Shown here in pieces: positions 37,823 to 57,513 of a stretch of DNA of 64,000 nucleotides. A program made the position numbers and the translations under genes. The stretch comes from Alphaproteobacteria bacterium (lineage in GTDB: Bacteria; Pseudomonadota; Alphaproteobacteria; Rhizobiales; Aestuariivirgaceae): positions 1 to 64,000 of the forward strand of contig JAHEFB010000008.1 in assembly GCA_024640405.1 (NCBI GenBank). The letters are read 5' to 3'. The first letter of the stretch is position 1, and every line of letters starts with the position of its first letter. The notes below the pieces were generated by a model, which saw only the letters and a program-made list of their open reading frames with translations, made no database searches and was not told where the DNA came from.

Positions 37823-38602
37823 TCATCGCATCCCGACAACCGGATCGGGATCTATTTCGCGCAGCAGCTTGCGGCGCATGGCGCGGGCAAAGTCATCATA
37901 GTCTTGAGCCACTTCGACGAAACTGCCGTCACCAACTGCCAGCCGTTCACGATAATAATCGTCCAGTTGCTTGTCTTCATTCAGAATTGCCAATCCGTTC
38001 AACGTTACATTACGGGCGATCGCCATGGACCGTGCCTCACTCAACACCGTTGAGTACTGGCGCGGCGGGGTTTCACGTCCGTCGCCGGACACATCCACGA
38101 CACGCCGGCTGGATTGTATGGCGTTTTCGTCAATCGACCTGATGGCATGGGCAACACCATCGCCAATGCCGGTACCGCCGACCTGATTGCGCGGCATGGC
38201 TGCAATAATGGCGGCTGCACGTTCCACTTCTGCCGCGTTGCTCAGGACAAACCAGCCTGTTTCATCTTTCGGATACCGTGCTTCTGCCCAGATCAATACG
38301 TTCAATGCGATCTGTTTTTGCGGACCTGCTGTGATGGCGCGCAAAACGGCCGGATCGCGCAGAGCAGTGGCAATTCCCGTCAGTTGCAACCTGTACTCCG
38401 CATTATCCACGCTGCCTGATGCATCGACAGCCAGCACCAATTCAAGATCAACCTGACCACCGGCAAGAGCCACATCGGTAGCCGGGCCGCTCAACACCAG
38501 CAATACTGCTGTCAATGCGCCAAAAAACTGTCTCACAGCGCCATGTTGTGAAAGCGGTTGTCGCTTGCAGGCATGACTTGGCTGGCTGCTAAGTGATTGC
38601 AT
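37823..38602 (-). CDS. DUF1194 (von Willebrand A-like) secreted protein, paralogue 1
   Basis: A periplasmic VWA-like protein of about 259 residues. The hydrophobic signal segment (FFGALTAVLLVLSGPATDVALA) is followed by VDLELVLAVDASGSVD, a MIDAS-type DxSxS motif, then VGGTGIGDGVAHAI and VVDVSGDGRE. A second copy lies at 53074-53817. The start is uncertain: ATG 38632 would leave only 5 bases to the divergent dehydrogenase gene, so ATG 38602 or GTG 38536 (MRQFFGALTAV) are more likely. It is coupled to the DUF1801 gene. Metal-dependent ligand binding is inferred from the motif; no function is known to me. Confidence 0.82.
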   Translation of the reverse strand: MQSLSSQPSHACKRQPLSQHGAVRQFFGALTAVLLVLSGPATDVALAGGQVDLELVLAVDASGSVDNAEYRLQLTGIATALRDPAVLRAITAGPQKQIALNVLIWAEARYPKDETGWFVLSNAAEVERAAAIIAAMPRNQVGGTGIGDGVAHAIRSIDENAIQSSRRVVDVSGDGRETPPRQYSTVLSEARSMAIARNVTLNGLAILNEDKQLDDYYRERLAVGDGSFVEVAQDYDDFARAMRRKLLREIDPDPVVGMR

Positions 38603-38637
38603 CGCTGCGTGGAATATTCTCATCAAGGACATGGGTC

Positions 38638-41070
38638 ATGAAATCGCATTATCGCGCAATTGTCATCGGCGGCGGCGTCGTCGGCTGTTCAATTCTGTAT
38701 CATCTGACGAAAAAAGGCTGGTCGGATATTCTGCTCATCGAGCGCGACGAACTGACATCCGGTTCAACCTGGCATGCGGCAGGCGGATTCCATACCCTGA
38801 ACGGCGACCCCAACGTCGCCAAGCTGCAGGAATACACGATCAACCTTTACAAGGAGATCGAGGAAGTCTCAGAGCAATCGACAGGTTGTCATGTCACTGG
38901 TGGTGTCATGCTGGTGTCGAACAAGGACCGCTTCGACTGGCTGAAAATGGCCCACGCCCGCAACAAGTACCTCGGTGTGGATACCCGCATGATCTCGGTT
39001 GAAGAAGCCGCCGAGCACTTTCCGCTAATGGACAAGGACCAGTTTGTCGGCGCCATGTGGCATCCACTGGAAGGCCACCTCGATCCATCCGGCACCACCC
39101 ATGCCTATGCCAAGGCAGCGCGGGTAAACGGAGCTGAGATCGTGCGCCAGAACCGGGTTCTGGAAACCAACCAGTTGCCGGATGGCACCTGGTCAGTGGT
39201 TACGGAAAAAGGCACCGTTACCTGCGAGCACCTGGTCAACGCCGGCGGCCTGTGGGGACGTGAAGTCGGCCGCATGGCGGGCCTGGAACTGCCGGTTTTG
39301 TGCATGGCGCACCAGTATCTCATCACTGAGGAAATGCCGGAAGTTGTTGCCTACAACGATGCCAACGACGGCAAGGAGATCGTCCACGCCATCGACTTTG
39401 ACGGTGAAATCTACATGCGCCAGGAAGGTAAAGGCATGCTGATGGGCACCTATGAGCCCAACGGCATACCCTGGTCGCCTACAGAGGCTCCATGGGATTT
39501 CTCCACCGAACTGCTGCCGCCGGACCTCGACCAGATTGCCGACAATCTGGAGCGTGGTTTCCAGCATCACCCGGCCTTTCAGTCTGCCGGCATCAAGAAT
39601 ATCATCAATGGCCCGTTCGCTTTCGGCCCTGACGGCAACCCGCTGATCGGTCCGGTCCGCGGCCTGCAGAACTACTGGGTGGCGTGTGGTGTCATGGCCG
39701 GGTTCAGCCAGGGCGGCGGCGTTGGTCTGGCACTCAGCAACTGGATTGTTGATGCAGATCCCGGATTCGATGTCTGGGCCATGGATATTGCGCGCTACGG
39801 CTCTTATGCCAACATGGCCTATACCAACAAGAAGGTACGCGAAAACTACGGTCGCCGCTTCCGCATCATGTTTCCCAATGAGGAGCTTCGCGCCGCACGC
39901 CCGTTGCGCACAACTCCGCTGTATGACCGGTTCAAGGCCATGGGAGCCTTCTTCGGGGCCTCCTACGGTATTGAAAGCGCCCTGTGGTTCGCGCCAGAAG
40001 GGAAAAAAGCCGAAGAAGCTGTTACATTCCGCCGCTCCGAGGCCTTCGGAATTGTTGGCGATGAGTGCCGGGCGGTGCGCAATTCAGTCGGTGTTCTTGA
40101 AATTTCCGGGTATGCCAAGTACGAGATCACCGGGTCCGGCGCCGAAGGCTGGCTGTCGCATCTGCTGGCCAACAAGGTACCAGCCAAGGGCCGCATGACC
40201 CTGGCTCCCATGCTTAAGGAAGACGGCAAGCTGATTGGCGATTTCTCGCTGGCCAAGGCGGACGACGAACGGTTTTACATATTCGGCTCAGGTGCTGCGG
40301 AGAATTTCCACATGCGCTGGTTCGAACAGCATCTGCCCGAAGACGGTTCTGTCAAGGTTCGTGCCTTTGGCCTGGAAATGTGCGGCCTGTCGATAGCCGG
40401 TCCGAATTCGCAGAAACTGCTGGCCAAACTTACAGACGCAGATGTCTCAACCAGCGCCCTGCCCTTCATGTCATTTCGCGAAATGGATCTGGGGCTGGTT
40501 CCGGCGAAGCTTGCCCGTGTCAGTTTCACCGGTGACCTGGGTTATGAAATCTGGGTGGCTGCAGAGTACCTCACTACGCTTCACACGATGATCATGGAGG
40601 CTGGTGAAGAATTTGACATCAAACCGGTGGGTGGACGGGCGTTGCTGTCGCTGCGGCTTGAAAAGAACTGGGGCACCTGGGCAAGAGAGTATCGTCCCAT
40701 TTACGGCCCGTATGAAGCCGGCATGGGCCGCTTCGTCGCTTTGTCCAAAAACGATTTCATCGGTCGTGATGCGGCTGCCAGGGAAAAGGAAACCGGCGGC
40801 GAGCGCGCCATGACGGTGTTCACGGTTCACGGCAATGAAGTCGACGTGATCGGTGATGAACCGATCTATCACGGCGGCAAGTGTGTCGGCTGGATCACAT
40901 CCGGCGGTTATGCTCATTCTGCAGGACAATCTGTTGCGATCGGGTTTGTGCCGAAAGAAATTGCCACTGAAACGGATGGGTTCGAGATTGAAATTCTCGG
41001 ACAGAACTATAAAGCTAGCCCGCAACGCGATCCGCTGTTTGATGCTGATGCTTCGCACATGAGATCATGA
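38638..41070 (+). CDS. Dimethylglycine/sarcosine dehydrogenase-like FAD enzyme with GcvT domain, paralogue 1
   Basis: An 810-residue two-domain flavoenzyme for oxidative N-demethylation, passing the methyl group to tetrahydrofolate. The N-terminal DAO domain has the FAD loop IGGGVVGCS and the covalent-flavin motif GSTWHAAGG with His46. An FAO_M linker (about 370-425) leads to a C-terminal GcvT aminomethyltransferase-like domain (about 430-800; SFTGDLGYEIWV, LRLEKNWGTWAREY). ATG 38638 begins at the family start. The next gene is a close paralogue, 26 bases downstream. Likely substrates are dimethylglycine, sarcosine or a related methylated amine. Confidence 0.9.
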   Translation: MKSHYRAIVIGGGVVGCSILYHLTKKGWSDILLIERDELTSGSTWHAAGGFHTLNGDPNVAKLQEYTINLYKEIEEVSEQSTGCHVTGGVMLVSNKDRFDWLKMAHARNKYLGVDTRMISVEEAAEHFPLMDKDQFVGAMWHPLEGHLDPSGTTHAYAKAARVNGAEIVRQNRVLETNQLPDGTWSVVTEKGTVTCEHLVNAGGLWGREVGRMAGLELPVLCMAHQYLITEEMPEVVAYNDANDGKEIVHAIDFDGEIYMRQEGKGMLMGTYEPNGIPWSPTEAPWDFSTELLPPDLDQIADNLERGFQHHPAFQSAGIKNIINGPFAFGPDGNPLIGPVRGLQNYWVACGVMAGFSQGGGVGLALSNWIVDADPGFDVWAMDIARYGSYANMAYTNKKVRENYGRRFRIMFPNEELRAARPLRTTPLYDRFKAMGAFFGASYGIESALWFAPEGKKAEEAVTFRRSEAFGIVGDECRAVRNSVGVLEISGYAKYEITGSGAEGWLSHLLANKVPAKGRMTLAPMLKEDGKLIGDFSLAKADDERFYIFGSGAAENFHMRWFEQHLPEDGSVKVRAFGLEMCGLSIAGPNSQKLLAKLTDADVSTSALPFMSFREMDLGLVPAKLARVSFTGDLGYEIWVAAEYLTTLHTMIMEAGEEFDIKPVGGRALLSLRLEKNWGTWAREYRPIYGPYEAGMGRFVALSKNDFIGRDAAAREKETGGERAMTVFTVHGNEVDVIGDEPIYHGGKCVGWITSGGYAHSAGQSVAIGFVPKEIATETDGFEIEILGQNYKASPQRDPLFDADASHMRS

Positions 41071-41096
41071 CCAAGTAGCCAGTCCGGGAGCTGCCA

Positions 41097-43526
41097 ATGA
41101 AGTCGCATTACAAGGCCATAGTAATCGGCGGTGGTGTGGTTGGCTGCTCTGTGCTGTATCACCTGACAAAAGCCGGCTGGAGCGATGTGCTGCTTGTCGA
41201 GCGTTCGCAACTGACGTCCGGTTCGACGTGGCATGCAGCGGGTGGATTCCTGACACTGAACGGCGACCCCAACGTCGCAAAGCTGCAGGCCTACACGATC
41301 GAGCTGTATGACGAGCTGGAACGTATCTCCGGCCAGTCGTGCGGCCTTCACCGGTGCGGTGGTCTGCTCATGGCTGACAGCCAGGAGCGTATGGACTGGT
41401 TGAAGATGGCTCACGCCCGGTCCGCCTATCTCGGCCTTGAAACCGAATTGCTGACCCCTGCGCAAGCCAAGGCACGCATGCCCTTACTGGACGAGAGCAA
41501 GTTTACAGGAGCCATGTGGGACGCAGCAGAAGGTAATCTCGATCCATCCGGTACCACACATGCCTATGCCAAATCCGCCCGCATCCAGGGTGCCGAAATC
41601 GAGCTGGAAAACCGGGTCGTCGAACTGATACCCCGCAGCGATGGCGGCTGGGATGTGGTGACCGAAAAAGGCACTGTCGCCTGCGAACACGTGATCAACT
41701 GCGGCGGATTGTGGGCACGTGAGGTCGGGCGCATGGTGGGCATTGAGCTGCCGGTGCTTGCAATGGAGCACATGTACCTTGTCACCGACGACATGCCCGA
41801 TGTGATTGCGTACAAGGAAGAGCACGGCGCGGACATGCCGATGATTGCCGACTTCGGTGCGGAAATCTATATGCGCCAGGAACGATCGGGCATGCTGCTT
41901 GGCACCTACGAACGGGACTGCCGGCCGTGGTCACCCAGAGACACGCCGTGGGATTTCGCCGCTGAACTGCTGCCGCCGGATCTGGATCGAATTACCCCAT
42001 CGCTCGAGAAAACCTTCGCGAGTTACCCCGCCATGGGCGAGGCAGGCATCAAGAATGTCGTCAACGGCCCGTTCACATTCGCACCTGATGGCAACCCGCT
42101 GGTGGGCCCGGTTCAGGGTCTGTCCAATTACTGGTGCGCGTGCGGTGTCATGGCCGGTTTCAGCCAGGGAGGCGGTGTCGGCCTCAGCCTTGCCAACTGG
42201 ATGGTCAACGGCGATCCGGGCGGAGATATCTGGGCCATGGATGTGGCGCGGTACGGTGATTGGGCGACGCGAAGCTATACCAATGAAAAGGTGCGCGAGA
42301 ACTATTCAAAGCGGTTCTCCATCAAATATCCCAATGAGGAACGCCCGGCCGCCCGGCCCCATCAAACAACACCGCTTTTCGATGTGATGATTAGGCAGGG
42401 CGCCGTCATGGGTGACAATTGGGGGCTTGAGGTTCCGTTGTGGTTTGCGCCGGAGGGTGTTGAACCCTTTGATATATTCTCCTTCCGGCGGTCCAATGAC
42501 TTTGCTCACGTGAAAGCAGAGGTTCTGAACACCCGTGAGCGGGTCGGCGTCACGGAGATTGCCAACTTTGCCAAATACGAGATCACAGGACCAGGCGCGG
42601 AAAGCTACCTGTCGCGCCTGATGACCAACAAGATGCCACGCACCGGGCGCATTTGCCTGACCCCCATGCTCAATGAACAAGGCAAGCTGATCGGTGACTT
42701 CACCATCGCCAAGGCCGCAGATGACCGCTTCATGATGTGGGGCTCGGCGCCGGCGCAGATTTATCACATGCGCTGGTTTGAAAAGCATCTGCCCGATGAT
42801 CAGTCGGTTCGGGTCGAGCGCCTAGACCTCGGTCTCGTCGGTCTATCCATTGCCGGGCCGAAATCCCGCGAGGTGCTTGCTGCGCTCACCGATGAGGATG
42901 TGTCCAATGCCGGCTTCCGTTTCATGGATTATCGCGAGATCGATGTGGCCAGTGTTCCCGCCAGGGTCAATCGCATCACCTACACCGGCGACCTCGGCTT
43001 TGAACTCTGGATTAAACCGGAATATGAGCGGCGGCTGTATACGGCAATCATGAAGGCAGGCGAAGCGTATGGTATTGTCAATTTTGGCATGCGCGCACTG
43101 CTTGCCATGCGCCTGGAGAAAAATTTTCCGACCTGGTATCGCGAACTCAGACCAATCTACGGCCCTTTTGAGGCCGGTATGGATCGCTTCATTGATCTGA
43201 CAAAGAACGATTTCATCGGTCGCGAGATGGCGCAGGCCGAACACGATGGCGCCGGCAAACTGGCGCGGGTCACGTTTGTCGTGGACGCCGATGATGCAGA
43301 TGTCATTGGCGACGAGCCGGTTTCACACGACGGCAAAATTGTTGGCTGGGTGACATCAGGCGGCTATGGCCACTATGTCAATGCATCGCTGGCACAAGGC
43401 TATATTCCAAAACAGCTGGTATCTGAAAAAACCGGATTTGAAATCGAGATCATGGGTGACATGCGCCCTGCCCGCATCCAGCACGAGCCTCTGTTTGATC
43501 CTGCCGGCGAACGGATGAGGAGCTGA
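41097..43526 (+). CDS. Dimethylglycine/sarcosine dehydrogenase-like FAD enzyme with GcvT domain, paralogue 2
   Basis: An 809-residue tandem paralogue of the preceding gene: 43 of the first 50 residues are identical, including the FAD loop and the covalent-flavin His46. The domain order is the same. The paralogues differ more in the substrate domain (for example [13 protein letters not shown] against GCHVTGGVMLVSN) and in the GcvT domain, which suggests different substrates or successive demethylations rather than a dosage duplication. The enolase-superfamily gene starts 8 bases after its stop. Confidence 0.9.
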
Positions 43527-43534
43527 CACGGATT

Positions 43535-44641
43535 ATGAAAATCAGAAAGCTGGAAACATTCACCAACGGGTTTGTCGGTTTTGTACGTGTCACCGCAGAC
43601 ACGGGAGACACCGGCTGGGGCCAGGTCTCCACCTATCACTCAGACATCACCGCACAAATCTTTCACAGGCAGGTTGCGCCTTATGCACTGGGGGAGGATG
43701 CGTATGATTTCGACGACCTGCTGGATCGCATTACAGAGCGCGAGCACAAGTTTCCGGGCTCTTATCTGCGCCGGGCCATGGCCGGACTGGATACCGCGCT
43801 GTGGGACTTGCGCGGGCGGGTGGAGAGCAAACCGGTAACCGAGTTGCTCGGCGGCTCTCCGGGACCCTTGCGGGCTTATGCATCCTCGATGAAACGTGAC
43901 ATAACCCCTGAAGATGAAGCCGCCCGTATGTGCAGATTGCGGGACCAGTGTGGTTTTGACGCCTTCAAGTTTCGTGTTGGCGCCGAGTGCGGCCGGGATG
44001 TCGATGAATGGCCGGGCCGTACAGAAGCCATTGTACCTGTAATGTGCAAGGCGCTGGGTGACGATGCGGCCAAACTGGTTGACGCGAATTCCGGGTTCTC
44101 GCCGGCACGGGCCATTGAAGTGGGCAGACTGCTGGAGTCGGAAGGCGTTTCACATTTCGAAGAACCCTGCCCTTACTGGGAACTGGAGCAGACCAGGCAG
44201 GTTACCGATGCACTGTCCATTGATGTCACCGGCGGCGAACAGGATTGCGACCTGTCGTGGTGGCGACACATGATCGGGATGCGCGCGGTTGACATCGTAC
44301 AACCGGATGTCATGTACATGGGTGGTCTGGCACGCACGCTAAGGGTCGCCGCCATGGCTGCACAGGCCGGCCTGCCCTGTACACCGCATTGCGCAAATCT
44401 CTCGCTGGTTACCCTGTGCACCATGCATCTGCTGCGTGCCATTCCCAACGCCGGCAAATACCTGGAGTTCTCGATCGAGGGAGAAGACTACTATCCCTGG
44501 CAGACTGGTCTGTTTGTTGAAGATCCATACAAGATCATTGATGGAAAGGCGACCGTAACAGATGCGCCTGGCTGGGGGTTCGAAGTCAGTCCGGCCTGGC
44601 TGGACAAGGCGATATACCAATCAAGTGAGTTTTCTGCATAA
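43535..44641 (+). CDS. Enolase-superfamily (mandelate racemase/muconate lactonizing) enzyme
   Basis: A 368-residue acid-sugar dehydratase or racemase-like enzyme. Metal ligands are visible as Asp183 (LVDANSG), Glu209 (HFEEP) and Glu235 (GGEQD). The general acid/base pair is His285 (CTPHCAN) with Asp258 (VQPD), and Glu311 (LEFSIE) follows, as in the mandelate racemase subgroup; Lys145 is in AFKFRVG. The Lys-Asp-Glu-Glu-His pattern excludes the MLE-type betaine epimerases with a second Lys. Substrate unknown. It is 8 bases from the flavoenzyme gene and 27 from the DddP-like gene. Confidence 0.85.
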
Positions 44642-44668
44642 ACCGCATCCATTGAAAAGGCAGCAGCC

Positions 44669-45922
44669 ATGCGCGACACCGTGTTCAGCGACGACCGGAA
44701 AAAATCCTATTTCAACCCTGAAGGCAAGGACAAGCCGATGCGATCGCCGGTACCGCATTCGGTGCTGGAAAAAGCGCGCGACTACCGCCGCCAACGGATG
44801 CTGGATCAGGTGATCAAGCACGATTGTGCGGCCATCTTGATGTACGACCCTCTAAACATCCGCTACACGTTTGATCTGTCCAACATGCAATTGTGGGGCA
44901 CGCACAACCCGTTTCACTACGCCATGTTGTTTGCCGACAGCCATTCGATCAATTTCGAGTATCACGGCGCCGAGCATCTGGCAGACGGGCTTGCGACCGT
45001 GCGCGACATCCGTCCCGCCAAAAGCTGGTTCTACTTTTCTGCGGGAGGCCGACTGGACGAGCGCGTCAATGCGTGGGCCGACGAAGTCGTGGACGAATTG
45101 AAAGCCCATGGTGGTGGCAATATGCGGCTGGCGGTCGACAAACTGGAGCCGATGGGCACGTTTGCACTGGCTGAACGCGGCGTTACAATCGTCGAAGGCC
45201 AGGAACTGACCGAACTGGCTCGCGAGATCAAGTCGGCAGACGAGCTTGAGTTGATGAAGTGGACGATCCGGGTTTGCGAGGCCGGCATGGCGCGTATCTG
45301 GGAAAACTCGCTCCCGGGAAAAACCGAGCAGGAAATCTGGGCAGAGCTGCACTATGAAAACATCCGTTCCGGCGGCGAGTGGATCGAAACCCGCCTGCTC
45401 ACCATTGGTGAACACAGCAATCCCTGGTTTTCCGAAGCCTCGGATTTCGTAGCCAGTGAAGGCGACATAATCGCCTTTGATACTGACCTGATCGGTCCCT
45501 ATGGCTATTGCGCCGACATTTCTCGCACCTGGACTATCGGCCATACCCGGTTTGATGCCAAGCAGCATGAACTGTACTCAGCAGCGCTTGAGCAAATCGA
45601 GCACAATGCCTCGATTCTGAAAGCCGGCATGACATCGCGGGAGTTCAACGAGAAGTCCTGGCGGATACCGGAAAAATATCAACCGTGCCGCTATTCGGTG
45701 GCTCTGCACGGAGTTGGCCTGTGCGACGAATACCCGTCTTTACCGCTGCATCCGGACTTTGACAGGGCCTATGATTTCACGTTTGAGGAAAACAGCGTGG
45801 TGTGCGTTGAAAGCCTGATCGGCGAAAAAGGCGGCAAGGAATGCGTCAAGCTCGAAACCCAGGTGGTTGTAACACCCGACGGCGTCCGGGCGCTTGACAC
45901 TTTTCCATGGGAAGACGTTTAA
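44669..45922 (+). CDS. M24-family protein of the DddP (DMSP lyase) type
   Basis: A 417-residue pita-bread metalloenzyme. DddP cleaves dimethylsulfoniopropionate to DMS and acrylate. The protein matches Roseovarius DddP in many blocks (DPLNIRYTFDLSNMQLW; HGGGNMRLAVDK; RSGGEWIETRLL; FDTDLIGPYGYCADISRTW; HGVGLCDEYP). The six metal ligands align as Asp271, Asp273, Asp283, His347, Glu381 and Glu396, and the catalytic Asp of DddP as Asp353, with nearly the same spacing as I recall for D295-D297-D307-H371-E406-E421 and D377. Ordinary Xaa-Pro peptidases and creatinases lack these blocks. It could still be a sister group with another onium substrate. It ends the flavoenzyme-enolase operon. Confidence 0.8.
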   Translation: MRDTVFSDDRKKSYFNPEGKDKPMRSPVPHSVLEKARDYRRQRMLDQVIKHDCAAILMYDPLNIRYTFDLSNMQLWGTHNPFHYAMLFADSHSINFEYHGAEHLADGLATVRDIRPAKSWFYFSAGGRLDERVNAWADEVVDELKAHGGGNMRLAVDKLEPMGTFALAERGVTIVEGQELTELAREIKSADELELMKWTIRVCEAGMARIWENSLPGKTEQEIWAELHYENIRSGGEWIETRLLTIGEHSNPWFSEASDFVASEGDIIAFDTDLIGPYGYCADISRTWTIGHTRFDAKQHELYSAALEQIEHNASILKAGMTSREFNEKSWRIPEKYQPCRYSVALHGVGLCDEYPSLPLHPDFDRAYDFTFEENSVVCVESLIGEKGGKECVKLETQVVVTPDGVRALDTFPWEDV

Positions 45923-45995
45923 ACTGTTTCAAAACAGACAGTTGGTAAGACTTACTTAAACTTTTGAAAACTTCGCGTTAACCCGACTCGCAGCA

Positions 45996-46023
45996 TCAAT
46001 CACATCATGAGTAATGTGATTGA
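45996..46023 (+). promoter_or_regulatory. Perfect hairpin presenting the start codon of the next gene
   Basis: Two perfect 10-base arms (TCAATCACAT and ATGTGATTGA) flank an 8-base loop that contains the ATG at 46007-46009. No Shine-Dalgarno sequence precedes it. It could control translation of the small gene or be a DNA operator. Confidence 0.65.
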
Positions 46024-46294
46024 TTTTGCGTTTAAATCCCGCGAACGTGAGTTGTCCCGACGCAGGATGAGTGAACCACCCGCAGCCATTGTACTGTTGA
46101 CCGAGGCCGGCAAAATAGCCGCCTGGGCCAACGGCCTGAATGAGCGAATCGAGGATGTGTGGTTCGGTGAAGACCATGAAGTTCAGTGGCAGCCATTTTC
46201 CGTCGCGGAGGCAATGGCCGAGCAACTGCGACAGCATCCTGCCGCGCTGGCAATGGCACAGGCCGGATTTCGAATAGAGGCCGTTCGTATCTAG
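46007..46294 (+). CDS. Small hypothetical protein (95 residues)
   Basis: A soluble protein rich in Ala and Glu with AAIVLLTEAGKIAAWANGLNE and a helical C-terminus (VAEAMAEQLRQHPAALAMAQ). No domain is recognised. Codon and amino-acid composition look like a genuine gene. Its start codon lies in the loop of a perfect hairpin and lacks a Shine-Dalgarno site, which is unusual. It is 84 bases downstream of the DddP-like gene. Confidence 0.6.
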   Translation: MSNVIDFAFKSRERELSRRRMSEPPAAIVLLTEAGKIAAWANGLNERIEDVWFGEDHEVQWQPFSVAEAMAEQLRQHPAALAMAQAGFRIEAVRI

Positions 46295-46307
46295 GGAATT
46301 TTAGTTG

Positions 46308-46600
46308 ATTCCGCTCACGCAAGCAGCCTGACGGCCGCGTTCCGCTGGGGCGCACTTCGTGCGACGGCCGGTCGGCCTTGCCTCAGCACTGCGTGTTTCG
46401 GATTTGTTTATTCCGCTCACGCAAGCAGCCTGACGGCTGCGCTCCTCTGGGGCGCACTTCGTGCGACGGCCGGTCGGCCTTGCCTCAGCACTGCGTGCCG
46501 GGTTTATTCCGCTCACGCAAGCAGCCTGACGGCTGCGCTCCGCTGGGGCGCACTTCGTGCGACGGCCAGCCGGCCTTGCCTCAGCACTGCGTGCTTCGGA
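46308..46600. repeat. Three tandem copies of a 95-102 bp repeat
   Basis: Units start at 46308, 46410 and 46506, each with ATTCCGCTCACGCAAGCAGC, then a GGGGCGCACTTCGTGCGACGG core and a GCCTTGCCTCAGCACTGCGTG end. They differ at a few bases. The core GCGCACTTCGTGCG is a hairpin. The minus-strand open frame over it only translates the repeat. From 46601 to 46707 there is no clear gene, though the sequence reads like a further fragment of repetitive DNA. Confidence 0.9.
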
Positions 46601-46707
46601 AGGGAGTTCATCATTACAGTAGTTGCGGGGGTTGGAGAACGGCCTGAGCGAAGCGAGGACAAGCTGTTCGACCAGAAAAATGACAACCATTCAATCAGCC
46701 AAGCCAC

Positions 46708-47334
46708 TTAAACCAGCAGGGCACGCTGCTTCACGTCTTTGGTCCACATATAAACGGCCAGCAGAGGTTGCAGCCCGACATTGGTGGCGTGCGGAACATA
46801 GGGCTCGTGCCAGACGGTTTCACCGGGTTCGCGTGGTGAGAAGACTTCATCGCGCACCCGCCATTCACTCATACCCGACAAGATCCAGTAAAGTTCGGGA
46901 GCCGGATGGGAGTGGTTGGGATAGTTGAGTCCCGGTCCAAGCAAGAACAGCCCCAGAAGAAAATCATCGCCGGCGTAGACACCGGTTGGCCCGATGATTT
47001 CTGCATAGGCATAATTGTCCATATAATGCGGCTGGCCCATGGCTTCGTTGGAGTAATTCGGGTTCTGGGTCCAGTGGAGGTCTTCCTCCACTGCCGCCAG
47101 CGCTGCAGCCACATCAGGGGCGACGAGCAACGTCGAGGCGACCACGTCCGGCAGGAACCGGCAGGCCGGCAATCGCCTCGCTGTCGGAACAGTCAATGCG
47201 GTGGCAGTGGTATCTTGCTGGACAAGCCGCGCCAAAGCTTCATCCACGCCGTCTTCACCGGTACTGTTGGTTCGCAAGGTGGAGCGGATGGCGCGGATCA
47301 GCCACTGCGCTGTGTCGTGAACATGCGATGCCAT
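46708..47334 (-). CDS. Cupin protein of the DMSP lyase family (DddQ/DddL-like)
   Basis: A 208-residue protein matching the dimethylsulfoniopropionate lyase cupin family. After a helical N-terminus there is LHWTQNPNYSNEAMG and YAYAEIIGPTGVYAGDDFLLGLFLLGPG (quoted in part: YAYAEIIGPTG, LGLFLLGPG), then cupin motif 1 YPNHSHPAPELYWILSG and motif 2 WHEPYVPHATN. The DddQ metal ligands align as His143, Glu147, Tyr149 and His182, with His141 also present. ATG 47334 is preferred over a TTG at 47352 because GGGAAGGGG precedes it. The family includes true DMSP lyases and untested members. It is convergent with the small gene/repeat region and divergent from the MmgE/PrpD gene. Confidence 0.78.
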   Translation of the reverse strand: MASHVHDTAQWLIRAIRSTLRTNSTGEDGVDEALARLVQQDTTATALTVPTARRLPACRFLPDVVASTLLVAPDVAAALAAVEEDLHWTQNPNYSNEAMGQPHYMDNYAYAEIIGPTGVYAGDDFLLGLFLLGPGLNYPNHSHPAPELYWILSGMSEWRVRDEVFSPREPGETVWHEPYVPHATNVGLQPLLAVYMWTKDVKQRALLV

Positions 47335-47523
47335 GTGCAACCCCTTCCCCAAAAGTCAGATCCCAACCGTGCCGTTCAACCGATAGCGCGTACATGGGCC
47401 AAACGGACAGCAAAAATCGCCAACAAGATTAACATCGAAACATTTTCGCTGACCACTTTTCAGATCGCTGCAACCAGTCCATGCTGACCGAATATTGCCA
47501 ACCAGCCAATTACAGGTGACACC

Positions 47524-48846
47524 GTGGACGCAATCGACTTCATATTGGGACTGGACGCGTCTCGTGTTCCTGAAAGCGCCCGCTACCATGCCACCCGTGT
47601 TCTGATTGACACGCTGGGTGTAGCTGCCGCCGCTACACAAACCGACAATTCTCGAATTCTTCGCGATTTCGCCAGCACCGCATTTGCTGCACCAGGCACG
47701 TCAGCAAAACTGCTGTTTGACGGACGCTCCGTATCGCTGCCAGGTGCGGGCTTCGCCAACTCGGGATCAATTGACTCTCTGGACGCCCACGATGGGCAGA
47801 GAAACACCAAGGGGCATATGGGCGTTGTCGTCATTCCGACCTTGTTTGCATTTGCGCGAACACCGATGCCTGTGTCGGGCAAAGAATTCATGACTCGACT
47901 GGTGATCGGTTATGAAATTGCTACCCGGGCAGGCCTGGCGCTGCACGCAAGCGTATCTGATTATCACACGTCCGGCTCCTGGAACGCGCTTGCAGCTGCT
48001 GCAATCGGCGCCCGTGCCCTCAAGCTTGACGCTGACTGGACCCGGCATGCGATCGGCATTGCTGAATACAACGGCCCACGATCGCAAATGATGCGTTGCA
48101 TCGACTATCCGACCATGGTCAAGGATGGCGCGACCTGGGGCGGATTTACAGGCATTGCAGCGGCGCAACTCGCTCAGTTGGGCCACACAGGCGCGCCAGC
48201 CGTCACAATGGAAAATCCGGATCTGGCGGTCTACTGGAACGATCTTGGCGGACGATGGTATGTTACCGATCAGTACGTCAAACTGTATCCCGTATGCCGC
48301 TGGGCCCAGCCGGCCATTGCAGCGGCCCTGTCCCTGAGTAATCAGTTTGATGTGGCAGACATTTCCGGAATCCGTATCCAGACCTTCCACGAAGCAAAGC
48401 GCCTGCCGCTGGCAGAACCTGCCAACACCGAACAGGCGCAATATTCGATCAAGTTCCCCGTTGCCGCCGCATTGGTGCGCGGCCACATCGGCGTCGAAGA
48501 AGTTTCCGGGGCAGCACTCAGCGACCCCGACATCCTGCGGTTGGCCAACATGATCGAAGTTACCGAGGACAATGAAGCCAACGCGGCTTTTCCGAAAGAC
48601 CGTCTCGCAAGGGTCGGCATTTCGCTGGCTGACGGGCGGGAACTTGAAAGCGGGATGATGAAGGCGGTCGGCGACCCCGAAGACCCGATCAGTGACGCCG
48701 CCCTGCATGAGAAGTTTACCGGCCTCGCCGCACCGGTTCTAGGCAAGGCCAGGGCCGGAAAGTTGCTTGAGACATGCGAAAGTCTCTGGGAGGCTGAATC
48801 AATCTCGGAACTGCTGGACCTGGTAACATCACCGGCGAGAGATTAA
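47524..48846 (+). CDS. MmgE/PrpD family protein
   Basis: A 440-residue protein of the 2-methylcitrate dehydratase/aconitate decarboxylase/immune-responsive gene 1 superfamily. Recognisable are ATRVLIDTLGVAAAATQT, NSGSIDSLDAHDG, and KLYPVCRWAQPAIAAAL. It starts with GTG. PrpD acts in the methylcitrate cycle for propionate, but no prpB or prpC is present, so the substrate is open. It is divergent from the cupin gene (about 190 bases) and its stop overlaps the end of the convergent flavoprotein gene by 4 bases. Confidence 0.88.
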   Translation: MDAIDFILGLDASRVPESARYHATRVLIDTLGVAAAATQTDNSRILRDFASTAFAAPGTSAKLLFDGRSVSLPGAGFANSGSIDSLDAHDGQRNTKGHMGVVVIPTLFAFARTPMPVSGKEFMTRLVIGYEIATRAGLALHASVSDYHTSGSWNALAAAAIGARALKLDADWTRHAIGIAEYNGPRSQMMRCIDYPTMVKDGATWGGFTGIAAAQLAQLGHTGAPAVTMENPDLAVYWNDLGGRWYVTDQYVKLYPVCRWAQPAIAAALSLSNQFDVADISGIRIQTFHEAKRLPLAEPANTEQAQYSIKFPVAAALVRGHIGVEEVSGAALSDPDILRLANMIEVTEDNEANAAFPKDRLARVGISLADGRELESGMMKAVGDPEDPISDAALHEKFTGLAAPVLGKARAGKLLETCESLWEAESISELLDLVTSPARD

Positions 48847-50852
48847 GCAATCTCCAGTGCTGCCTTGCGGCCTTCGTAAATGGCCATGTGAGCCTTGCGG
48901 GGCGCATTGCAGTCACCCACCGTGCTGTATGGCGGACAATCACCCAGAGCCTGAATGTCCTCAGCAAACTCCGTGTCGGGGCTGGCGACGGTCGCCAGTA
49001 CCAGTGTGTCAAAATGCTGCTCGAAAGTATCGCCCGTCAGCAAGCTCACAAATCCGGCTTCCGAACCCTCATTTCCAGGTTTGCCCCACGACAGCAGAGC
49101 GGTATCGGTTAGGGCGATGCCGCCGTGGCGGGCAAATCTGGCGCGAGCAGCACCGTCGGCTCCGGTGCCGGCCAGCTCCGCCGCCAGTACCGCGTTTGCT
49201 GTCATGGCGGTCACTTTGTGACCAGCCTCGGCCAGAAACATTGCGGTTCCAATGCCACGCCAGGAATGCAGGTCATCCAGCACCAGCACCCGCTCGCCAA
49301 TCATTACTCCGTTGCTCAGGACCCTGTGATAGCTGAGAACGTTTTCTTCGTCATGACCCGGCAACTCATCGTTCATCGGCAGGGCCCGCTGGAAGCCGGA
49401 CGTTACAGGTTTGATGCCGGTTGCAACAATGATGTGATCAGGATGCAACCGGCGGACTGTCAGCGGCGTTGCCTCCTCGCCAAGTCTTACATCAACACCC
49501 AGGCGGTCCAGTTCATCGCCGTACCATCTGATATGATCGGCAATTCTGGATCGTGTCGGCTGGCGGGCTGCCAGTTGCCACTGACCGCCAATCATCGGTC
49601 CGCGTTCCATCAGGGTCACCTTGTGCCCCGCTTCCGCCGATACCCGGGCAGCTTCAAGGCCTGCTGGTCCCGCGCCAACCACCAGTATGGACTTGCGGCG
49701 TTCCGCCCTGGCAATTTTGTCGCCCCGCCATTCCCACTCACGCCCCACCGACGGATTGACCAGGCAGGAAATCCAGTAATCCTTGTAGCGGCGCGCAATG
49801 CATTGCTGGTTGCAGTGAATGCACGGCCGGATAGTGGCTCCAAGGCCAGCTTCGGCCTTGTTGGCCAGATGCGGATCAGCAATCTGGGCGCGAACCATTG
49901 AACAGGTGTCGGCCTGGCCGGTTGAAATCAACATTTCAGCCTTTTCGGGTGAATGAATGCCGGCCTCCGCCTGTACCCGGGCAAACCGCATATGGTGTTT
50001 GATGTGATCAGCCAGATGAGCGCCTTCCACACCCTCATGAACATGGGTCGGGATAATCGGCTGGTTGCGGAAATAGCTGCCAGTGCCGCATGTCACATAA
50101 TCCATCAGCCCGCGCTTATCGTGCCATGAGGTGATTTCGCTGAGGGCTTCAAGAGACAGGGCGGGTTCTGCCAACTGATCAACCGATACAGCCAGGCCGA
50201 TGATGAAATCGGGACCACACGCTGCGCGGATACGCTTCAATATCTCAGAAGAAAACCGTACCCGGCGATCCAGACTGCCCCCCCAATTGTCATCCCGCCG
50301 GTTGGACCAGGGGGTCCAGAACTGATCAATCAGGGAATGGTAGGCCGCGAAAACCTCGACACCGTCAAAACCTGCCTGCTGTGCACGGTCGGCGGCGGCA
50401 ACAAATGAGGCTATCAATTCCTCGATCTCTGCCTCGCTGACTGTGTGACCGCCATCGGAATCATGCATTGACGGCATGCCCGATGCCGACCAGTTGGCAT
50501 GATAGGAGTTTGCTCCGTCACCGTGCTGCCCAACATGATACAACTGCTGCAGCATCACCGTGTCATGGTTGCTGCAGGCTTCATTGATCTTGCGCAGCGG
50601 CGCAATAATCGCATCGTCATTTGCCCTGAAGTTTCCGCGGGTCAGTACGCCGGATGCATGCACCGGCACGGGTTCAACCACGATCATTCCGGCGCCACCC
50701 TTGGCACGTTCGACGTAGTAGGCCTTGGTACGCCGGGAGGGCAACCCGTTCTCAGCCATGTTGTTGGTATGGGCGCCAAACACGATGCGATTTTTCAATC
50801 GCTTGTGGTTGATCGTTATAGGTGTGAACAAATGCGGGTATGGATTGCTCAT
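48843..50852 (-). CDS. FMN/FAD/4Fe-4S NADH:flavin oxidoreductase (StcD/TMADH/dienoyl-CoA reductase family)
   Basis: A 669-residue two-part flavoenzyme. The N-terminal Old-Yellow-Enzyme barrel (PHLFTPITINHKRLKNRIVFGAH with first 370 residues) ends with the 4Fe-4S motif CIHCNQQCIARRYKDYWISC. The C-terminal pyridine-nucleotide-disulfide-type domain starts at ILVVGAGPAGLEAA. Relatives include trimethylamine/dimethylamine dehydrogenase, 2,4-dienoyl-CoA reductase and StcD, the N-methylproline demethylase of stachydrine catabolism. The neighbouring methyl-amine flavoenzymes favour a demethylase reading, but the sequence alone does not decide. Confidence 0.87.
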   Translation of the reverse strand: MSNPYPHLFTPITINHKRLKNRIVFGAHTNNMAENGLPSRRTKAYYVERAKGGAGMIVVEPVPVHASGVLTRGNFRANDDAIIAPLRKINEACSNHDTVMLQQLYHVGQHGDGANSYHANWSASGMPSMHDSDGGHTVSEAEIEELIASFVAAADRAQQAGFDGVEVFAAYHSLIDQFWTPWSNRRDDNWGGSLDRRVRFSSEILKRIRAACGPDFIIGLAVSVDQLAEPALSLEALSEITSWHDKRGLMDYVTCGTGSYFRNQPIIPTHVHEGVEGAHLADHIKHHMRFARVQAEAGIHSPEKAEMLISTGQADTCSMVRAQIADPHLANKAEAGLGATIRPCIHCNQQCIARRYKDYWISCLVNPSVGREWEWRGDKIARAERRKSILVVGAGPAGLEAARVSAEAGHKVTLMERGPMIGGQWQLAARQPTRSRIADHIRWYGDELDRLGVDVRLGEEATPLTVRRLHPDHIIVATGIKPVTSGFQRALPMNDELPGHDEENVLSYHRVLSNGVMIGERVLVLDDLHSWRGIGTAMFLAEAGHKVTAMTANAVLAAELAGTGADGAARARFARHGGIALTDTALLSWGKPGNEGSEAGFVSLLTGDTFEQHFDTLVLATVASPDTEFAEDIQALGDCPPYSTVGDCNAPRKAHMAIYEGRKAALEIA

Positions 50853-50985: not shown

Positions 50986-51909
50986 TCATTTAGTCTCGCA
51001 ATTGGCGGTCCATGGCGGTTTTGGGCGATATAATGCGGCGATCCAATCCAAAAAACTACGGACCTTTAGTGGCTCATACCGCTTACTGGCACTCAGCGCA
51101 TATATGCCCAGGGTGCTTCCCGTCCAGCCCGGCAACACCCGCACCAGCCGGCCGGAGGCAATATCCGCGTTGGCAATGAAGTCGGGTTGCAGGGCAATTC
51201 CACCCCCCGAAACAGCCACCTCTTCAATGGCATCACCGCTGTTTGCCCACACCGCCGGGGACACACGCACCTGCTCCGAGGCACCCGTGCTGTCGCGCAC
51301 CCTCCACAGATCACCCTCCGAGCCAAGCGAATAACCAAGGCAGCGATGATCGAGCAGTGATTGCGGCGTTTCGGGACTGCCGTGGCTGGCAATGTATTCC
51401 GGGCTTGCACACATGATTTCCCGGGCACTGGCGATGCGCCTGGCAATCAGGTTGGAATCGGACATTCGCCCGGTAATGCGAATTGCGACATCAAACCCTT
51501 CCTCTACCAGATCAACCAACCGGTCGTTCAGCGTCATATCAATACTGACGTCCGGATTGACCGAGGTATACTGTCCGAGATAGGGCGCAATATGCCGTAC
51601 CCCGAATGACATTGGTGCGGAAACGGCCAACCGGCCCTGCGGTGTCAATGTCTGAAGACCAGCAATGCGATCTGCCTCGTCAAGTTGCGCCAGAATATGC
51701 CTGGCCCGCTCCAGATAGACGGCACCTGTACTGGTCAGACTGAGCGAGCGCGTGGTCCGGTTCAACAATCGCACGCCAAGATGGGCTTCAAGATCCGCCA
51801 CATGTCGAGACGCCATGTTGCGTGACATGTCGAGCGCATCAGCAGCGGCGGCGAAGCTGCCGTCATCTACGACCGTCACAAATACTTCAATGGCGCGAAG
51901 GCGATCCAT
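50986..51909 (-). CDS. LysR-family transcriptional regulator
   Basis: A 307-residue LTTR with the N-terminal helix-turn-helix (FVTVVDDGSFAAAADALDMSRN) and a type II binding-fold effector domain (from GRLAVSAPMSFGVRHIAPYL). It is divergent from doxX, with palindromes in the 108-base intergenic region, so it probably regulates the doxX-VOC pair, a common arrangement for resistance or redox functions. Confidence 0.92.
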   Translation of the reverse strand: MDRLRAIEVFVTVVDDGSFAAAADALDMSRNMASRHVADLEAHLGVRLLNRTTRSLSLTSTGAVYLERARHILAQLDEADRIAGLQTLTPQGRLAVSAPMSFGVRHIAPYLGQYTSVNPDVSIDMTLNDRLVDLVEEGFDVAIRITGRMSDSNLIARRIASAREIMCASPEYIASHGSPETPQSLLDHRCLGYSLGSEGDLWRVRDSTGASEQVRVSPAVWANSGDAIEEVAVSGGGIALQPDFIANADIASGRLVRVLPGWTGSTLGIYALSASKRYEPLKVRSFLDWIAALYRPKPPWTANCETK

Positions 51910-51910
51910 T

Positions 51911-52437: not shown

Positions 52438-52441
52438 GATC

Positions 52442-53846: not shown

Positions 53847-54914
53847 TTAACCCGGAGACAGGCCGCGAAGACGCTCAGACCGGCGGCGCAACAATTCCAG
53901 AGTGGTCAACAGGGCAATTGAGATCACCACCAGCACCGTCGCCACTGCAAGAATGGTTGGCGAAATCTGTTCCCGAATGCCGGAGAACATCTGGCGCGGA
54001 ATGGTAACCTGGTGCACATCAGCCAGGAAGATTACTGCAACAACCTCATCCAGCGAGGTGATGAAAGCAAACAGCGCACCTGAGATCATGCCCGGCAAGA
54101 TCAACGGCATGATCACCCGGCGGAACGTGGTCCAGCCATTTGCACCAAGGCTCTTCGACGCGCGTATCAGCGAGTTGTCGAAACCGGTCAGTGTTGCGGT
54201 GACGGTGATGATCACAAACGGAACTCCCAGCGTGGCGTGAGCCAGAACAATACCGAGATCTTCATTGATAAGGCCATCGGGGAAAAACGGAAACGTGTCC
54301 TTTTTTGCATAGAAGAAGAACATGCCGGTCGCGGTAATCACCAGTGGCACAATCATCGGCGAGATCAACAGGCTTGTTATGGCTGATCTCCACGGCATCT
54401 CAGGGCGTGATAGACCCAGTGCCGCAAGGGTGCCGAAAAACGTTGCCATGATGGTCGCCAGAACAGCAAACTTGAATGAATTGAATGCGGCTTTCACCCA
54501 GGTCGCGTTGTTCCACATGTCGGACCACCAGCCGTCAACACGATTGGGATCGTTCATGCCGAACAGCATGATATCCTGATACCAGCGTGTCGAAAATGCA
54601 GCGGGATCAAGCGACATCATGCCTTGTGTGAAACTGAAATAGGGCTCTGAGTTAAATGACAGCGGCATTATGATGAGCACCGGTGTGATCAGGAAAATAA
54701 AGATCATCGTGCAGATCAGCAGGAAAATGTACTGGCCGAACTTCTCCAGCCACGTCGCATAAGGTGGCAGATCACTCATGAAGTACAGCGGCAGCCCTAT
54801 GATTATCGCGAACCCAATTGTGGCAACCAGTGTGCCACTGAACAGATATGCGATAACGCACGCCACGCCAAAAGCAATGTAACCGGGTGCGGGCAATTTA
54901 TCCAATGCGCTCAT
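53847..54914 (-). CDS. ABC transporter permease, PotC type
   Basis: A 355-residue inner-membrane subunit of a spermidine/putrescine-type importer. It has an extra N-terminal pair of helices (about residues 12-50) before the usual core, and the EAA loop (RASKSLGANGWTTFRRVIMPLI in part: SKSLGANGW, PLILPG). It overlaps nothing and follows the PotB-type gene by 10 bases. Substrate is not necessarily polyamine; this class also carries opines, amino-acid derivatives and betaines. Confidence 0.88.
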   Translation of the reverse strand: MSALDKLPAPGYIAFGVACVIAYLFSGTLVATIGFAIIIGLPLYFMSDLPPYATWLEKFGQYIFLLICTMIFIFLITPVLIIMPLSFNSEPYFSFTQGMMSLDPAAFSTRWYQDIMLFGMNDPNRVDGWWSDMWNNATWVKAAFNSFKFAVLATIMATFFGTLAALGLSRPEMPWRSAITSLLISPMIVPLVITATGMFFFYAKKDTFPFFPDGLINEDLGIVLAHATLGVPFVIITVTATLTGFDNSLIRASKSLGANGWTTFRRVIMPLILPGMISGALFAFITSLDEVVAVIFLADVHQVTIPRQMFSGIREQISPTILAVATVLVVISIALLTTLELLRRRSERLRGLSPG

Positions 54915-54924
54915 GACTTGCTCC

Positions 54925-56205: not shown

Positions 56206-56287
56206 GTTATGCCTTCTTCCCCGTCCCTGTCGACAGACTAAAATATCGCCAAGCCATTCACGTCATAATAAAAAGTACTCAATTGGC

Positions 56288-56314
56288 CCGGGCGGATGAT
56301 GGACACCCGCCCGG
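56288..56314 (-). other. Intercistronic hairpin after the substrate-binding protein gene
   Basis: A perfect 8-bp GC stem (CCGGGCGG with CCGCCCGG, 11-base loop) in the 127-base gap between the potD-type stop and the potB-type start. On the minus strand a T5 run comes only about 17 bases later, so partial termination or mRNA stabilisation is likely. Confidence 0.6.
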
Positions 56315-56332
56315 ACACGGGCAAAATAAACC

Positions 56333-57418: not shown

Positions 57419-57442
57419 CCAGACTTACTCCCTTTGGTAGAA

Positions 57443-57495: not shown

Positions 57496-57513
57496 AACAG
57501 AATTATCGAAATC

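What the first reader, a model, noticed from the sequence alone, without database searches (positions are those of the whole stretch)
38638..50852. Locus with two unrelated DMSP-lyase-type enzymes beside methylamine/betaine flavoenzymes
Seen: a DddP-type M24 protein (44669-45922) and a DddQ/L-type cupin (46708-47334) lie 0.8 kb apart. Around them are tandem dimethylglycine dehydrogenase-like enzymes, an enolase-superfamily enzyme, an MmgE/PrpD protein and a StcD/TMADH-like flavoprotein. Known: DddP and DddQ independently evolved to cleave DMSP, and PrpD-type enzymes act in propionate metabolism downstream of acrylate. Inference: the locus may degrade DMSP together with betaines or another methylated onium compound. 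It could also be a pathway for an undescribed onium compound in which the lyase-family members have a new substrate.
Basis: partly seen in the sequence, partly recalled or inferred. Interest (0 to 1): 0.8.

Follow-up and report, generated by a model that had tools for sequence, protein, structure and literature searches.

The report
DMSP-lyase relatives in betaine-degradation locus
This bacterial gene cluster holds relatives of two enzymes that make the climate gas dimethyl sulfide, but both fall outside the clades of the reference enzymes and their kin often sit beside genes for stripping methyl groups from nitrogen compounds, so the cluster likely breaks down a nitrogen betaine rather than the sulfur compound DMSP.

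Summary
The genes are all there, at the stated coordinates. The M24 protein keeps all eight DddP metal and catalytic residues, and the cupin keeps all six DddQ active-site residues. Neither groups with the reference DMSP lyases: the M24 scores 393 bits against a DddP cut-off of 600 and sits in its own strongly supported clade, and the cupin sits apart from three DddQ references.

Kin of both occur in soil and nodule Alphaproteobacteria, often beside N-demethylation genes (DMGDH, MttB, betaine-homocysteine methyltransferase, Rieske oxygenases) and sometimes glycine-betaine transporters. In 8 of 10 StcD/HpbA-type loci read, a "DMSP_lyase" cupin adjoins the N-methylproline demethylase gene of the proline betaine pathway. 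In Sinorhizobium fredii the M24 (there split into two frames), a cupin, StcD and a relative of the window's flavoprotein occur together.

The cluster is conserved in sister genomes; one relative has M24, flavoprotein and two cupins in a single run. Best reading: an undescribed betaine-catabolic locus in which the lyase relatives likely act at a C-N+ centre. The substrate is unknown and activity on DMSP is not excluded. Side result: the six-residue cupin DMSP-lyase signature does not separate DMSP lyases from these relatives.

The parts
38635..41070 (+). DMGDH1, dimethylglycine dehydrogenase-like flavoenzyme with folate-binding domain
   Evidence: Pfam DAO/FAO_M/GCV_T; PDB dimethylglycine dehydrogenase 4pab E 5e-160
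41097..43526 (+). DMGDH2, tandem paralogue, 59% identical to DMGDH1
43535..44641 (+). Enolase-superfamily (mandelate racemase group) enzyme, function unknown
   Evidence: MR_MLE; solved chains 3t8q, 3u4f, 3t9p, 3tcs at 612-629 bits, none named beyond racemase/MLE family; 66-73% identical in the 20 rows listed of 69 plasmid records
44669..45922 (+). DddP-like M24 metalloenzyme, outside the DddP clade
   Evidence: NF043017 393 bits, cut-off 600; 41.5% identical to RlDddP, own clade 100/100; 8 of 8 catalytic/metal residues kept
46708..47334 (-). DMSP_lyase-family cupin, outside the clade of the DddQ references
   Evidence: PF16867 111.7 bits; tree; YHHEYH active-site residues; AlphaFold model pLDDT 95, best PDB hits DddQ with TM 0.70-0.74
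47524..48846 (+). MmgE/PrpD-family protein, not a PrpD equivalog
   Evidence: nearest solved chains Bacillus subtilis IRG1 and IDS-epimerase, E 3e-13 and 1e-12
48843..50852 (-). OYE/TMADH-type FMN and FAD flavoprotein (called OYEw here)
   Evidence: 50-51% identical homologues in rhizobial and Roseobacteraceae plasmids
50986..51909 (-). LysR-type regulator
   Evidence: kept in L003 and L004
32834..37361 (+). Dpp/Opp-type ABC transporter (two permeases, one protein with two ATPase domains)
   Evidence: BPD_transp_1 twice; ABC_tran and oligo_HPY, two stretches each; 66-77% identical copies beside M24 and cupin in L006-L008
53074..53817 (-). DUF1194 (VWA) protein
   Evidence: DUF1194 cluster in 24 of 33 loci
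53847..58626 (-). Pot-type ABC transporter: potC, potB, potD, potA (permease names are mine)
   Evidence: potA TIGR01187 377.7 bits over cut-off; SBP_bac_8; BPD_transp_1 for both permeases
37823..38632 (-). Second DUF1194 protein, divergent from DMGDH1

Best explanation
The locus is likely a catabolic island for an imported nitrogen betaine (an N-methylated onium compound, possibly amino-acid-derived) and not a DMSP pathway. Inferred steps: the Dpp/Opp-type and Pot-type ABC transporters bring the compound in, and the enolase-superfamily enzyme may set its alpha-carbon configuration or dehydrate it. The DddP-like M24 enzyme (predicted dinuclear metal site, Asp353 as base, Tyr342) and the DddQ-like cupin (His141/143/182, Glu147, Tyr138/149) would each use DMSP-lyase-type chemistry, carboxylate bound to metal and proton removed next to it, to cleave or rearrange a C-N+ rather than a C-S+ bond. 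The two DMGDH-like enzymes and the TMADH-type flavoprotein would then remove N-methyl groups oxidatively, the DMGDHs passing them to folate. Shown here: the genes, their kept catalytic residues, their clades, and recurrence of the same gene families in demethylation and betaine loci. Not shown: the substrate and any reaction.
For: (1) M24 lies in a 29-row clade (100/100, branch 0.53) apart from the 13-row clade holding RlDddP (100/99). It scores 393, cut-off 600; three clade mates score 362, 400 and 425, against 886, 812, 692, 623 and 592 for five members of the RlDddP-side clade. (2) Relatives live in soil and nodules: 179 plasmid records match at E 1e-30, 152 of them Rhizobium or Sinorhizobium; the 40 rows listed are 59-64% identical (that collection holds many rhizobial plasmids). 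(3) Context: 14 of 23 clade loci read carry a DMGDH, MttB, betaine-homocysteine methyltransferase or Rieske gene. In a separate search of 60 relatives by M24 alone, 18 loci besides the window score over 600 bits (taken as clade, not re-treed); 9 of 18 carry a DMGDH, 10 a PF16867-type cupin, 6 a window- or L011-type OYE flavoprotein, and 16 at least one of these or a Rieske match, one of the two Rieske matches only 34%. The chance of a DMGDH within 10 kb of a random gene in the window's genome is about 4% (from 8 frames of 802-858 aa). (4) Terrarubrum plasmid: soxBDAG, a DMGDH-type oxidoreductase, DUF1289, bmt, mttB, MR/MLE and M24 on one strand. (5) Sinorhizobium fredii SMH12: ETF, cupin, StcD-type enzyme, glycine-betaine ABC transporter, Rieske + reductase, M24 (in two frames), OYEw homologue and MttB within about 22 kb. 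(6) In 8 of 10 StcD/HpbA-type loci read (L100, L102, L175, L176, L178, L181, L182, L184) a PF16867-type cupin is the next gene; the S. meliloti one scores 223 bits to the DMSP_lyase model, twice the window's. (7) L204: DUF1194-OCD-M24-OYEw-FeADH-cupin-cupin-hydrolase on one strand. L011 keeps the genes it shares with the window in the same order and orientation. (8) DddK, a cupin DMSP lyase, joins dimethylamine or pyrrolidine to acrylate, so this active-site type can handle C-N bonds (PMC12582016, abstract and passages).
Against: All DddP and DddQ catalytic residues checked are kept, so DMSP or DMSOP cleavage remains possible. The genome also holds an AcuI-type protein over cut-off and a DmdA-like protein at 375 of 410 bits, so acrylate and DMSP metabolism may exist elsewhere in it. 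Nine of 23 M24-clade loci show no demethylation gene in the stretch read (L005-L008, L082-L085, L089), and two of 18 in the relatives set show none of the linked genes (L198, a 5.9-kb contig, and L205). DMGDH or MttB also lie beside 2 of 9 RlDddP-side loci and 6 of 20 other DddP-like loci, so the context is not exclusive to this clade. In the class sample the clade genomes' cupins are mostly of other clades, and only in the window's genome and G274 within 15 kb of the M24. Paracoccus, Shinella, S. meliloti and R. etli IE4803 StcD/HpbA loci have the cupin but no M24 in the stretch read; Pseudosulfitobacter and Thioclava StcD/HpbA loci show no PF16867 cupin. The StcD-linked cupins are a different clade from the window's, 30% identical in the pair compared, and the window's flavoprotein is only 30% identical to an StcD-type enzyme. 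The S. fredii SMH12 and CB3060 M24 frames and the NGR234 OYE frame appear split. Some cupin loci show only an ABC transporter beside the cupin (L103, L104). No enzyme of the window has a tested substrate.
Confidence: 0.57

Rival explanations
1. Genuine DMSP (or DMSOP) cleavage locus: both proteins are divergent but functional DMSP lyases, and the demethylases serve glycine betaine taken up together with DMSP.
For: All catalytic residues checked are kept; cupin model matches DddQ best among solved structures; AcuI-type protein present in the genome; DMSP lyases also accept DMSOP (PMC10686828 passages).
Against: M24 393 bits against cut-off 600 and outside the RlDddP clade; cupin outside the clade of the DddQ references; relatives in soil and nodule bacteria; none of the ten proteins of 38635-53817 scanned is named as an acrylate or propionate enzyme over a cut-off, and the AcuI-type gene lies on another contig; MmgE/PrpD protein not a methylcitrate dehydratase.
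Confidence: 0.18
2. Two independent units that only happen to touch: DMGDH1-DMGDH2-ENO-M24 on one strand, and Pot transporter-DUF1194-OYE-cupin on the other, each for its own substrate.
For: Opposite strands; many relatives carry only one unit, e.g. cupin with potA and no DddP-like M24 in Aestuariivirga-type loci, or M24 with MttB and no cupin.
Against: Both units together in Anderseniella, L004 and L011, and interleaved in one run in L204 and L005-L008; M24, cupin and OYEw homologue again together in S. fredii SMH12.
Confidence: 0.13
3. M24 is a hydrolase (peptidase- or creatinase-like) that splits an N-methylated peptide or amide imported by the Dpp-type transporter; the cupin is an accessory isomerase or epimerase.
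For: Dpp/Opp-type transporter or its binding protein beside several M24-clade loci (L006-L008, L080, L081, L086, L088); in Aestuariivirga-type loci another M24 with Creatinase_N domain stands in the same operon.
Against: The clade keeps Phe (25 of 29 rows; Tyr in 4) and Asp (29 of 29) where M24 peptidases are said to have two histidines, a change thought to abolish peptidase activity in DddP (PMC5395565 passage; which columns these are is my reading).
Confidence: 0.12

Closest known systems
DddP DMSP lyase (RlDddP 4rzy, RdDddP 4b28)
   Same: M24 fold; six metal ligands plus Tyr366 and Asp377 equivalents all present
   Different: 41.5% identity to RlDddP, separate clade, below the equivalog cut-off, 30 columns with a different fixed residue
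DddQ cupin DMSP lyase (4la2, 5cu1, 4b29)
   Same: PF16867 cupin, predicted fold TM 0.70-0.74, six active-site residues
   Different: 19-24% identity in the structural matches, separate clade, kin in records titled groundwater and Rhizobiales
Proline betaine / stachydrine catabolism (stcD, hpbA, hpbD loci)
   Same: PF16867 cupin, OYE-type demethylase, enolase-superfamily enzyme and ABC importer together; M24 added in several rhizobia
   Different: Window has tandem DMGDHs instead of a Rieske oxygenase, no StcD-like flavoprotein above 30%, other transporters
Glycine betaine - dimethylglycine - sarcosine demethylation (Bmt/MttB, DMGDH, SoxBDAG)
   Same: DMGDH-type enzymes; Terrarubrum puts the same M24 family in such an operon
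   Different: No Bmt, MttB or SoxA/SoxB reference is kept as a match in the 64-kb window
Trimethylamine/histamine dehydrogenase and 2,4-dienoyl-CoA reductase flavoproteins
   Same: Oxidored_FMN plus pyridine nucleotide-disulphide domains
   Different: Below the cut-off of all 25 NCBIfam families shown of 47; substrate unknown

Membership tests
DddP DMSP lyase | NCBIfam NF043017 equivalog cut-off 600 bits | tested here: not met
   393 bits; RlDddP-side proteins 886, 812, 692, 623 and 592
DddP DMSP lyase | Monophyly with characterised DddP | tested here: not met
   Window in 29-row clade 100/100; RlDddP, the only characterised row, in 13-row clade 100/99; fungal DddPs not included
DddP DMSP lyase | Six metal ligands, Tyr366, Asp377 | tested here: met
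   8 of 8 in the window, and in 29 of 29 clade rows; residue numbers from PMC4108388 passages
DddP DMSP lyase | DMS + acrylate from DMSP | not testable with these tools
   needs enzyme assay
Cupin DMSP lyase (DddQ) | PF16867 above gathering score | tested here: met
   111.7 bits, cut-off 27; also met by StcD/HpbA-linked cupins, so not specific
Cupin DMSP lyase (DddQ) | Tyr120, His123, His125, Glu129, Tyr131, His163 | tested here: met
   YHHEYH in the window and in 76 of 83 rows, StcD-linked cupins included, so not diagnostic; residues from PMC4437653 passages
Cupin DMSP lyase (DddQ) | Clade with characterised DddQ | tested here: not met
   Three DddQ references form their own clade 100/98; window elsewhere; deep branches of that tree are weak
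Cupin DMSP lyases DddL, DddW, DddK, DddY, DddU | Clade membership | not tested
   No reference sequence in the trees; DddK and DddY appear only as weaker structural hits
Proline betaine (Stc/Hpb) pathway | StcD/HpbA orthologue | tested here: not met
   window flavoprotein 30% identical to R. leguminosarum StcD-type enzyme
Proline betaine (Stc/Hpb) pathway | PF16867 cupin near an OYE-type flavoprotein and an ABC importer | tested here: met
   window 46708-58626
Proline betaine (Stc/Hpb) pathway | Rieske demethylase | tested here: not met
   no match of the Rieske reference at E 1e-15 in the 64-kb window
Dimethylglycine dehydrogenase | Full-length DAO-FAO_M-GCV_T architecture | tested here: met
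   substrate not tested
2-methylcitrate dehydratase PrpD | TIGR02330 cut-off 458 bits | tested here: not met
   22.4 bits

The most novel reading that the evidence does not exclude
DddP and the cupin DMSP lyases are marine offshoots of two older enzyme families whose main work is cutting C-N+ bonds of nitrogen betaines. This locus runs such a lyase-first route for a quaternary amine, with one M24 and one cupin enzyme, and the Pfam family named DMSP_lyase is mostly a betaine-pathway family.
Probability: 0.32. Interest if true: 0.85.

Novelty: new variant of a known kind. Interest (0 to 1): 0.6.

Why it matters
DMSP lyase genes are counted in metagenomes by sequence to estimate dimethyl sulfide production. 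If close relatives with the same catalytic residues serve nitrogen betaines, such counts need clade-aware limits. It would also give an evolutionary source for DddP and the cupin lyases, and name candidate enzymes for a betaine route in soil, nodule and other bacteria, including a cupin beside stcD that can be knocked out in Sinorhizobium.

Tried and rejected
Rejected: the PrpD-propionate link; reading the six-residue cupin signature as proof of DMSP cleavage; reading Anderseniella-only conservation as enough (wider loci were needed). The enolase-superfamily enzyme was traced to Roseobacteraceae and Shinella plasmids, in five loci read: four of five have an ABC transporter matching the window's potA within 12 kb (L170-L172, L174), and five of five a GMC-type oxidoreductase or choline dehydrogenase; this did not fix a substrate. 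By gene counting it is likely SPOA0378 in Ruegeria pomeroyi, near SPOA0381-0384, listed as a spermidine transporter in PMC9038784 (passage); this is my inference. The prolidase/creatinase-type M24 in the same place of Aestuariivirga-type operons is noted but not explained. The M24 AlphaFold model was only moderate (pLDDT 77.7) and was not used.

Literature: 10 searches. I judged them by the listed titles and abstract starts, and several lists were cut (for example 25 of 150 papers, 15 of 39). No listed paper visibly ties PF16867 cupins or DddP-like M24 proteins to betaine loci; that is weak evidence of novelty, as the library lacks most subscription papers. The two most relevant papers looked up, the proline betaine pathway (PMC3950512) and the opp-like proline betaine transporter Prb (PMC1595395), are not held; I saw only their titles in a reference list, and what I say of the pathway beyond annotated gene names is recalled.

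Rows dropped before counts: two short M24 hits (L123, L126) were left out; L043 and L044 (the latter with an in-frame stop) did not come through gene calling, and the loci were fetched later, so none of these is in the M24 tree. In one search cupins with identical tails were merged. In one search seven of the 23 loci had been fetched through the cupin, so its cupin count (10 of 23) is biased and is not used. In one search stretches were 6-41 kb (the window 64 kb), and 4-20 kb, so absence is absence in the stretch read.
Full report
What is there. DMGDH1, DMGDH2, an enolase-superfamily gene and the M24 gene run on the plus strand with gaps of 26, 8 and 27 bases. The cupin faces them on the minus strand, 785 bases away, and is followed on that strand by the OYE-type flavoprotein, a LysR regulator, a DUF1194 gene and a Pot-type ABC transporter; an MmgE/PrpD gene on the plus strand lies between cupin and flavoprotein. 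A Dpp/Opp-type ABC transporter lies upstream of DMGDH1. The nearest named relative with the cluster is an Anderseniella MAG (L003, M24 96% identical).

Is the M24 a DddP? The NCBI DddP equivalog model gives 393 bits against a cut-off of 600. In the same test five proteins of the RlDddP-side clade score 886, 812, 692, 623 and 592, one of another DddP-like branch 520, and three clade mates of the window 362, 400 and 425. In a 72-row tree the window lies in a 29-row clade with 100/100 support, while RlDddP (PDB 4rzy) lies in a 13-row clade with 100/99. Yet the six metal ligands and the two catalytic residues described for DddP (PMC4108388 passages) are present in the window and in 29 of 29 clade rows. 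So the active site looks DddP-like and the clade is not DddP's.

Is the cupin a DddQ? It passes PF16867, its predicted fold (pLDDT 95) matches DddQ structures best (TM 0.70-0.74, 19-24% identity), and it keeps all six DddQ active-site residues. In an 83-row tree the three DddQ references form one clade (100/98), the cupins beside stcD/hpbA another, and the window sits in a third, 33-row clade (98/96) with Aestuariivirga, Taklimakanibacter, other Hyphomicrobiales and Anderseniella; deep branches are weak. [quoted passage not shown] Here 76 of 83 rows carry the full Y-H-H-E-Y-H set, the stcD/hpbA-linked cupins included, so the signature does not separate DMSP lyases from these relatives.

Neighbourhoods by M24. 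In a sample of 385 genomes of the class, 12 have an M24 of this clade (over 600 bits). Of those 12, 10 also have a cupin match, against 40 of the other 373; shared ancestry is not removed from that comparison, the cupins are mostly of other clades, and only in the window's genome and in G274 does one lie within 15 kb of the M24. Reading 23 clade loci, 10 carry a DMGDH, 6 an MttB, 4 a betaine-homocysteine methyltransferase and 3 a Rieske oxygenase; 14 of 23 carry at least one of these and 9 carry none. Of 9 loci of the RlDddP-side clade, 2 carry a DMGDH; of 20 other DddP-like loci, 6 carry a DMGDH or MttB at 39% identity or more. So the demethylation context is commonest in the window's clade but not unique to it. 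A separate search of 60 relatives by M24 alone gave 18 loci over 600 bits besides the window: 9 with DMGDH, 10 with a PF16867-type cupin, 6 with an OYE flavoprotein of the window or L011 type, 2 with a Rieske match (one at 34%), 2 with none of these. Seven of those 18 have the contig length of loci fetched earlier through the cupin. Of five same-genus genomes four have the M24; three of them show DMGDH1, DMGDH2, ENO, M24, cupin, PrpD-like and OYE in the window's order, and the fourth is on a 4-kb contig that ends after M24.

Betaine loci with the same families. Terrarubrum: soxBDAG, a DMGDH-type enzyme, DUF1289, bmt, mttB, MR/MLE, M24; its MR/MLE is only 26% identical to the window's. Rhizobium anhuiense: putA, Rieske and reductase, M24, 4-hydroxyproline epimerase, glycine-betaine ABC transporter, formaldehyde genes, ETF and two PF16867-type cupins, one of them with the active-site residues lost, beside an OYE enzyme. 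The R. leguminosarum copy of that OYE enzyme (96% identical) is 94% identical to an annotated stcD and 75% to an annotated hpbA. S. fredii SMH12 has cupin, StcD-type enzyme, betaine transporter, Rieske, M24, a 51% homologue of the window's flavoprotein and MttB within about 22 kb, with the M24 in two overlapping frames; in NGR234 the M24 is whole and the flavoprotein frame is broken. Shinella places a 51% homologue of that flavoprotein directly after a glycine-betaine/proline transporter, and Pseudosulfitobacter places one in a run with a 72% StcD-type enzyme and a proline racemase, near an ornithine-cyclodeaminase-type gene; in R. phaseoli the context is not clearly betaine. Of 10 StcD/HpbA-type loci read, 8 have a PF16867-type cupin as the next gene; Pseudosulfitobacter has none and Thioclava has a short Cupin_2 protein on the other strand. 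Paracoccus, Shinella, S. meliloti and R. etli IE4803 have hpbA/stcD-cupin without M24 in the stretch read. StcD is described as an N-methylproline demethylase of stachydrine catabolism (PMC12239276 passage). Loci that do not fit: Sinorhizobium and Ensifer cupins inside a Dpp-type transporter operon with no demethylase near.

How it likely works. The common thread is removal of N-methyl groups from onium amino compounds. The DMGDH pair and the flavoprotein are natural demethylases (inferred from family). The M24 and cupin would act on the carbon skeleton with lyase-type chemistry at a C-N+ centre. That this active-site type can handle C-N bonds is shown for DddK, which adds dimethylamine, pyrrolidine and other amines to acrylate (PMC12582016, abstract and passages). 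The Dpp/Opp-type importer fits a betaine: a S. meliloti opp-like transporter, Prb, is reported for proline betaine (title only, in the reference list seen). The order of steps and the substrate are not determined.

Limits. DMSP or DMSOP cleavage is not excluded by sequence. The genome has an AcuI-type protein over cut-off, a DmdA-like protein just under cut-off and two more PF16867 cupins elsewhere. DddL, DddW, DddK, DddY, DddU and fungal DddP were not in the trees. Counts are of related loci and are not independent events.

Noticed in passing
G000:C56:93820-94911 (L109:8821-9924): DmdA-like protein at 375 bits, cut-off 410, elsewhere in the same genome; possible DMSP demethylase variant.
   Followed up: partly
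G000:C35:7297-7911 and G000:C32:72814-73254: Two further PF16867 cupins in the genome; the C35 one lies with genes that look like acyl-CoA and keto-acid cleavage enzymes (read from sequence, no search).
   Followed up: partly
L100:17281-17976 and L102:36323-37021: Second PF16867-type cupin in Rhizobium stcD loci has lost active-site residues (FHQRFF for YHHEYH), suggesting a non-catalytic partner.
   Followed up: no
L012-L033 (e.g. L021:5331-6641, L029:1138-2409): In 12 loci a prolidase/creatinase-type M24 stands in front of potA-DUF1194 and the cupin, where other relatives have the DddP-like M24.
   Followed up: partly
L004:12424-13218: A HalD-like (weak Pfam match) oxygenase gene is inserted between the enolase-type gene and M24 in one relative.
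   Followed up: no
window 37823-38632 and 53074-53817: Two DUF1194 (VWA-type) genes flank the cluster, about 40% identical; DUF1194 recurs beside the cupin unit in many relatives, role unknown.
   Followed up: partly
DddP-like rows: Among 30 rows outside the two main clades (one of them the Creatinase_N outgroup), 7 have Gly, one Asn and one Cys at the catalytic Asp377 position, hinting at further functions.
   Followed up: no
L170:12001-13104: Ruegeria pomeroyi copy of the enolase-superfamily gene (69% identical) lies near a Pot-type transporter that by gene counting is SPOA0381-0384, listed as a spermidine transporter.
   Followed up: partly
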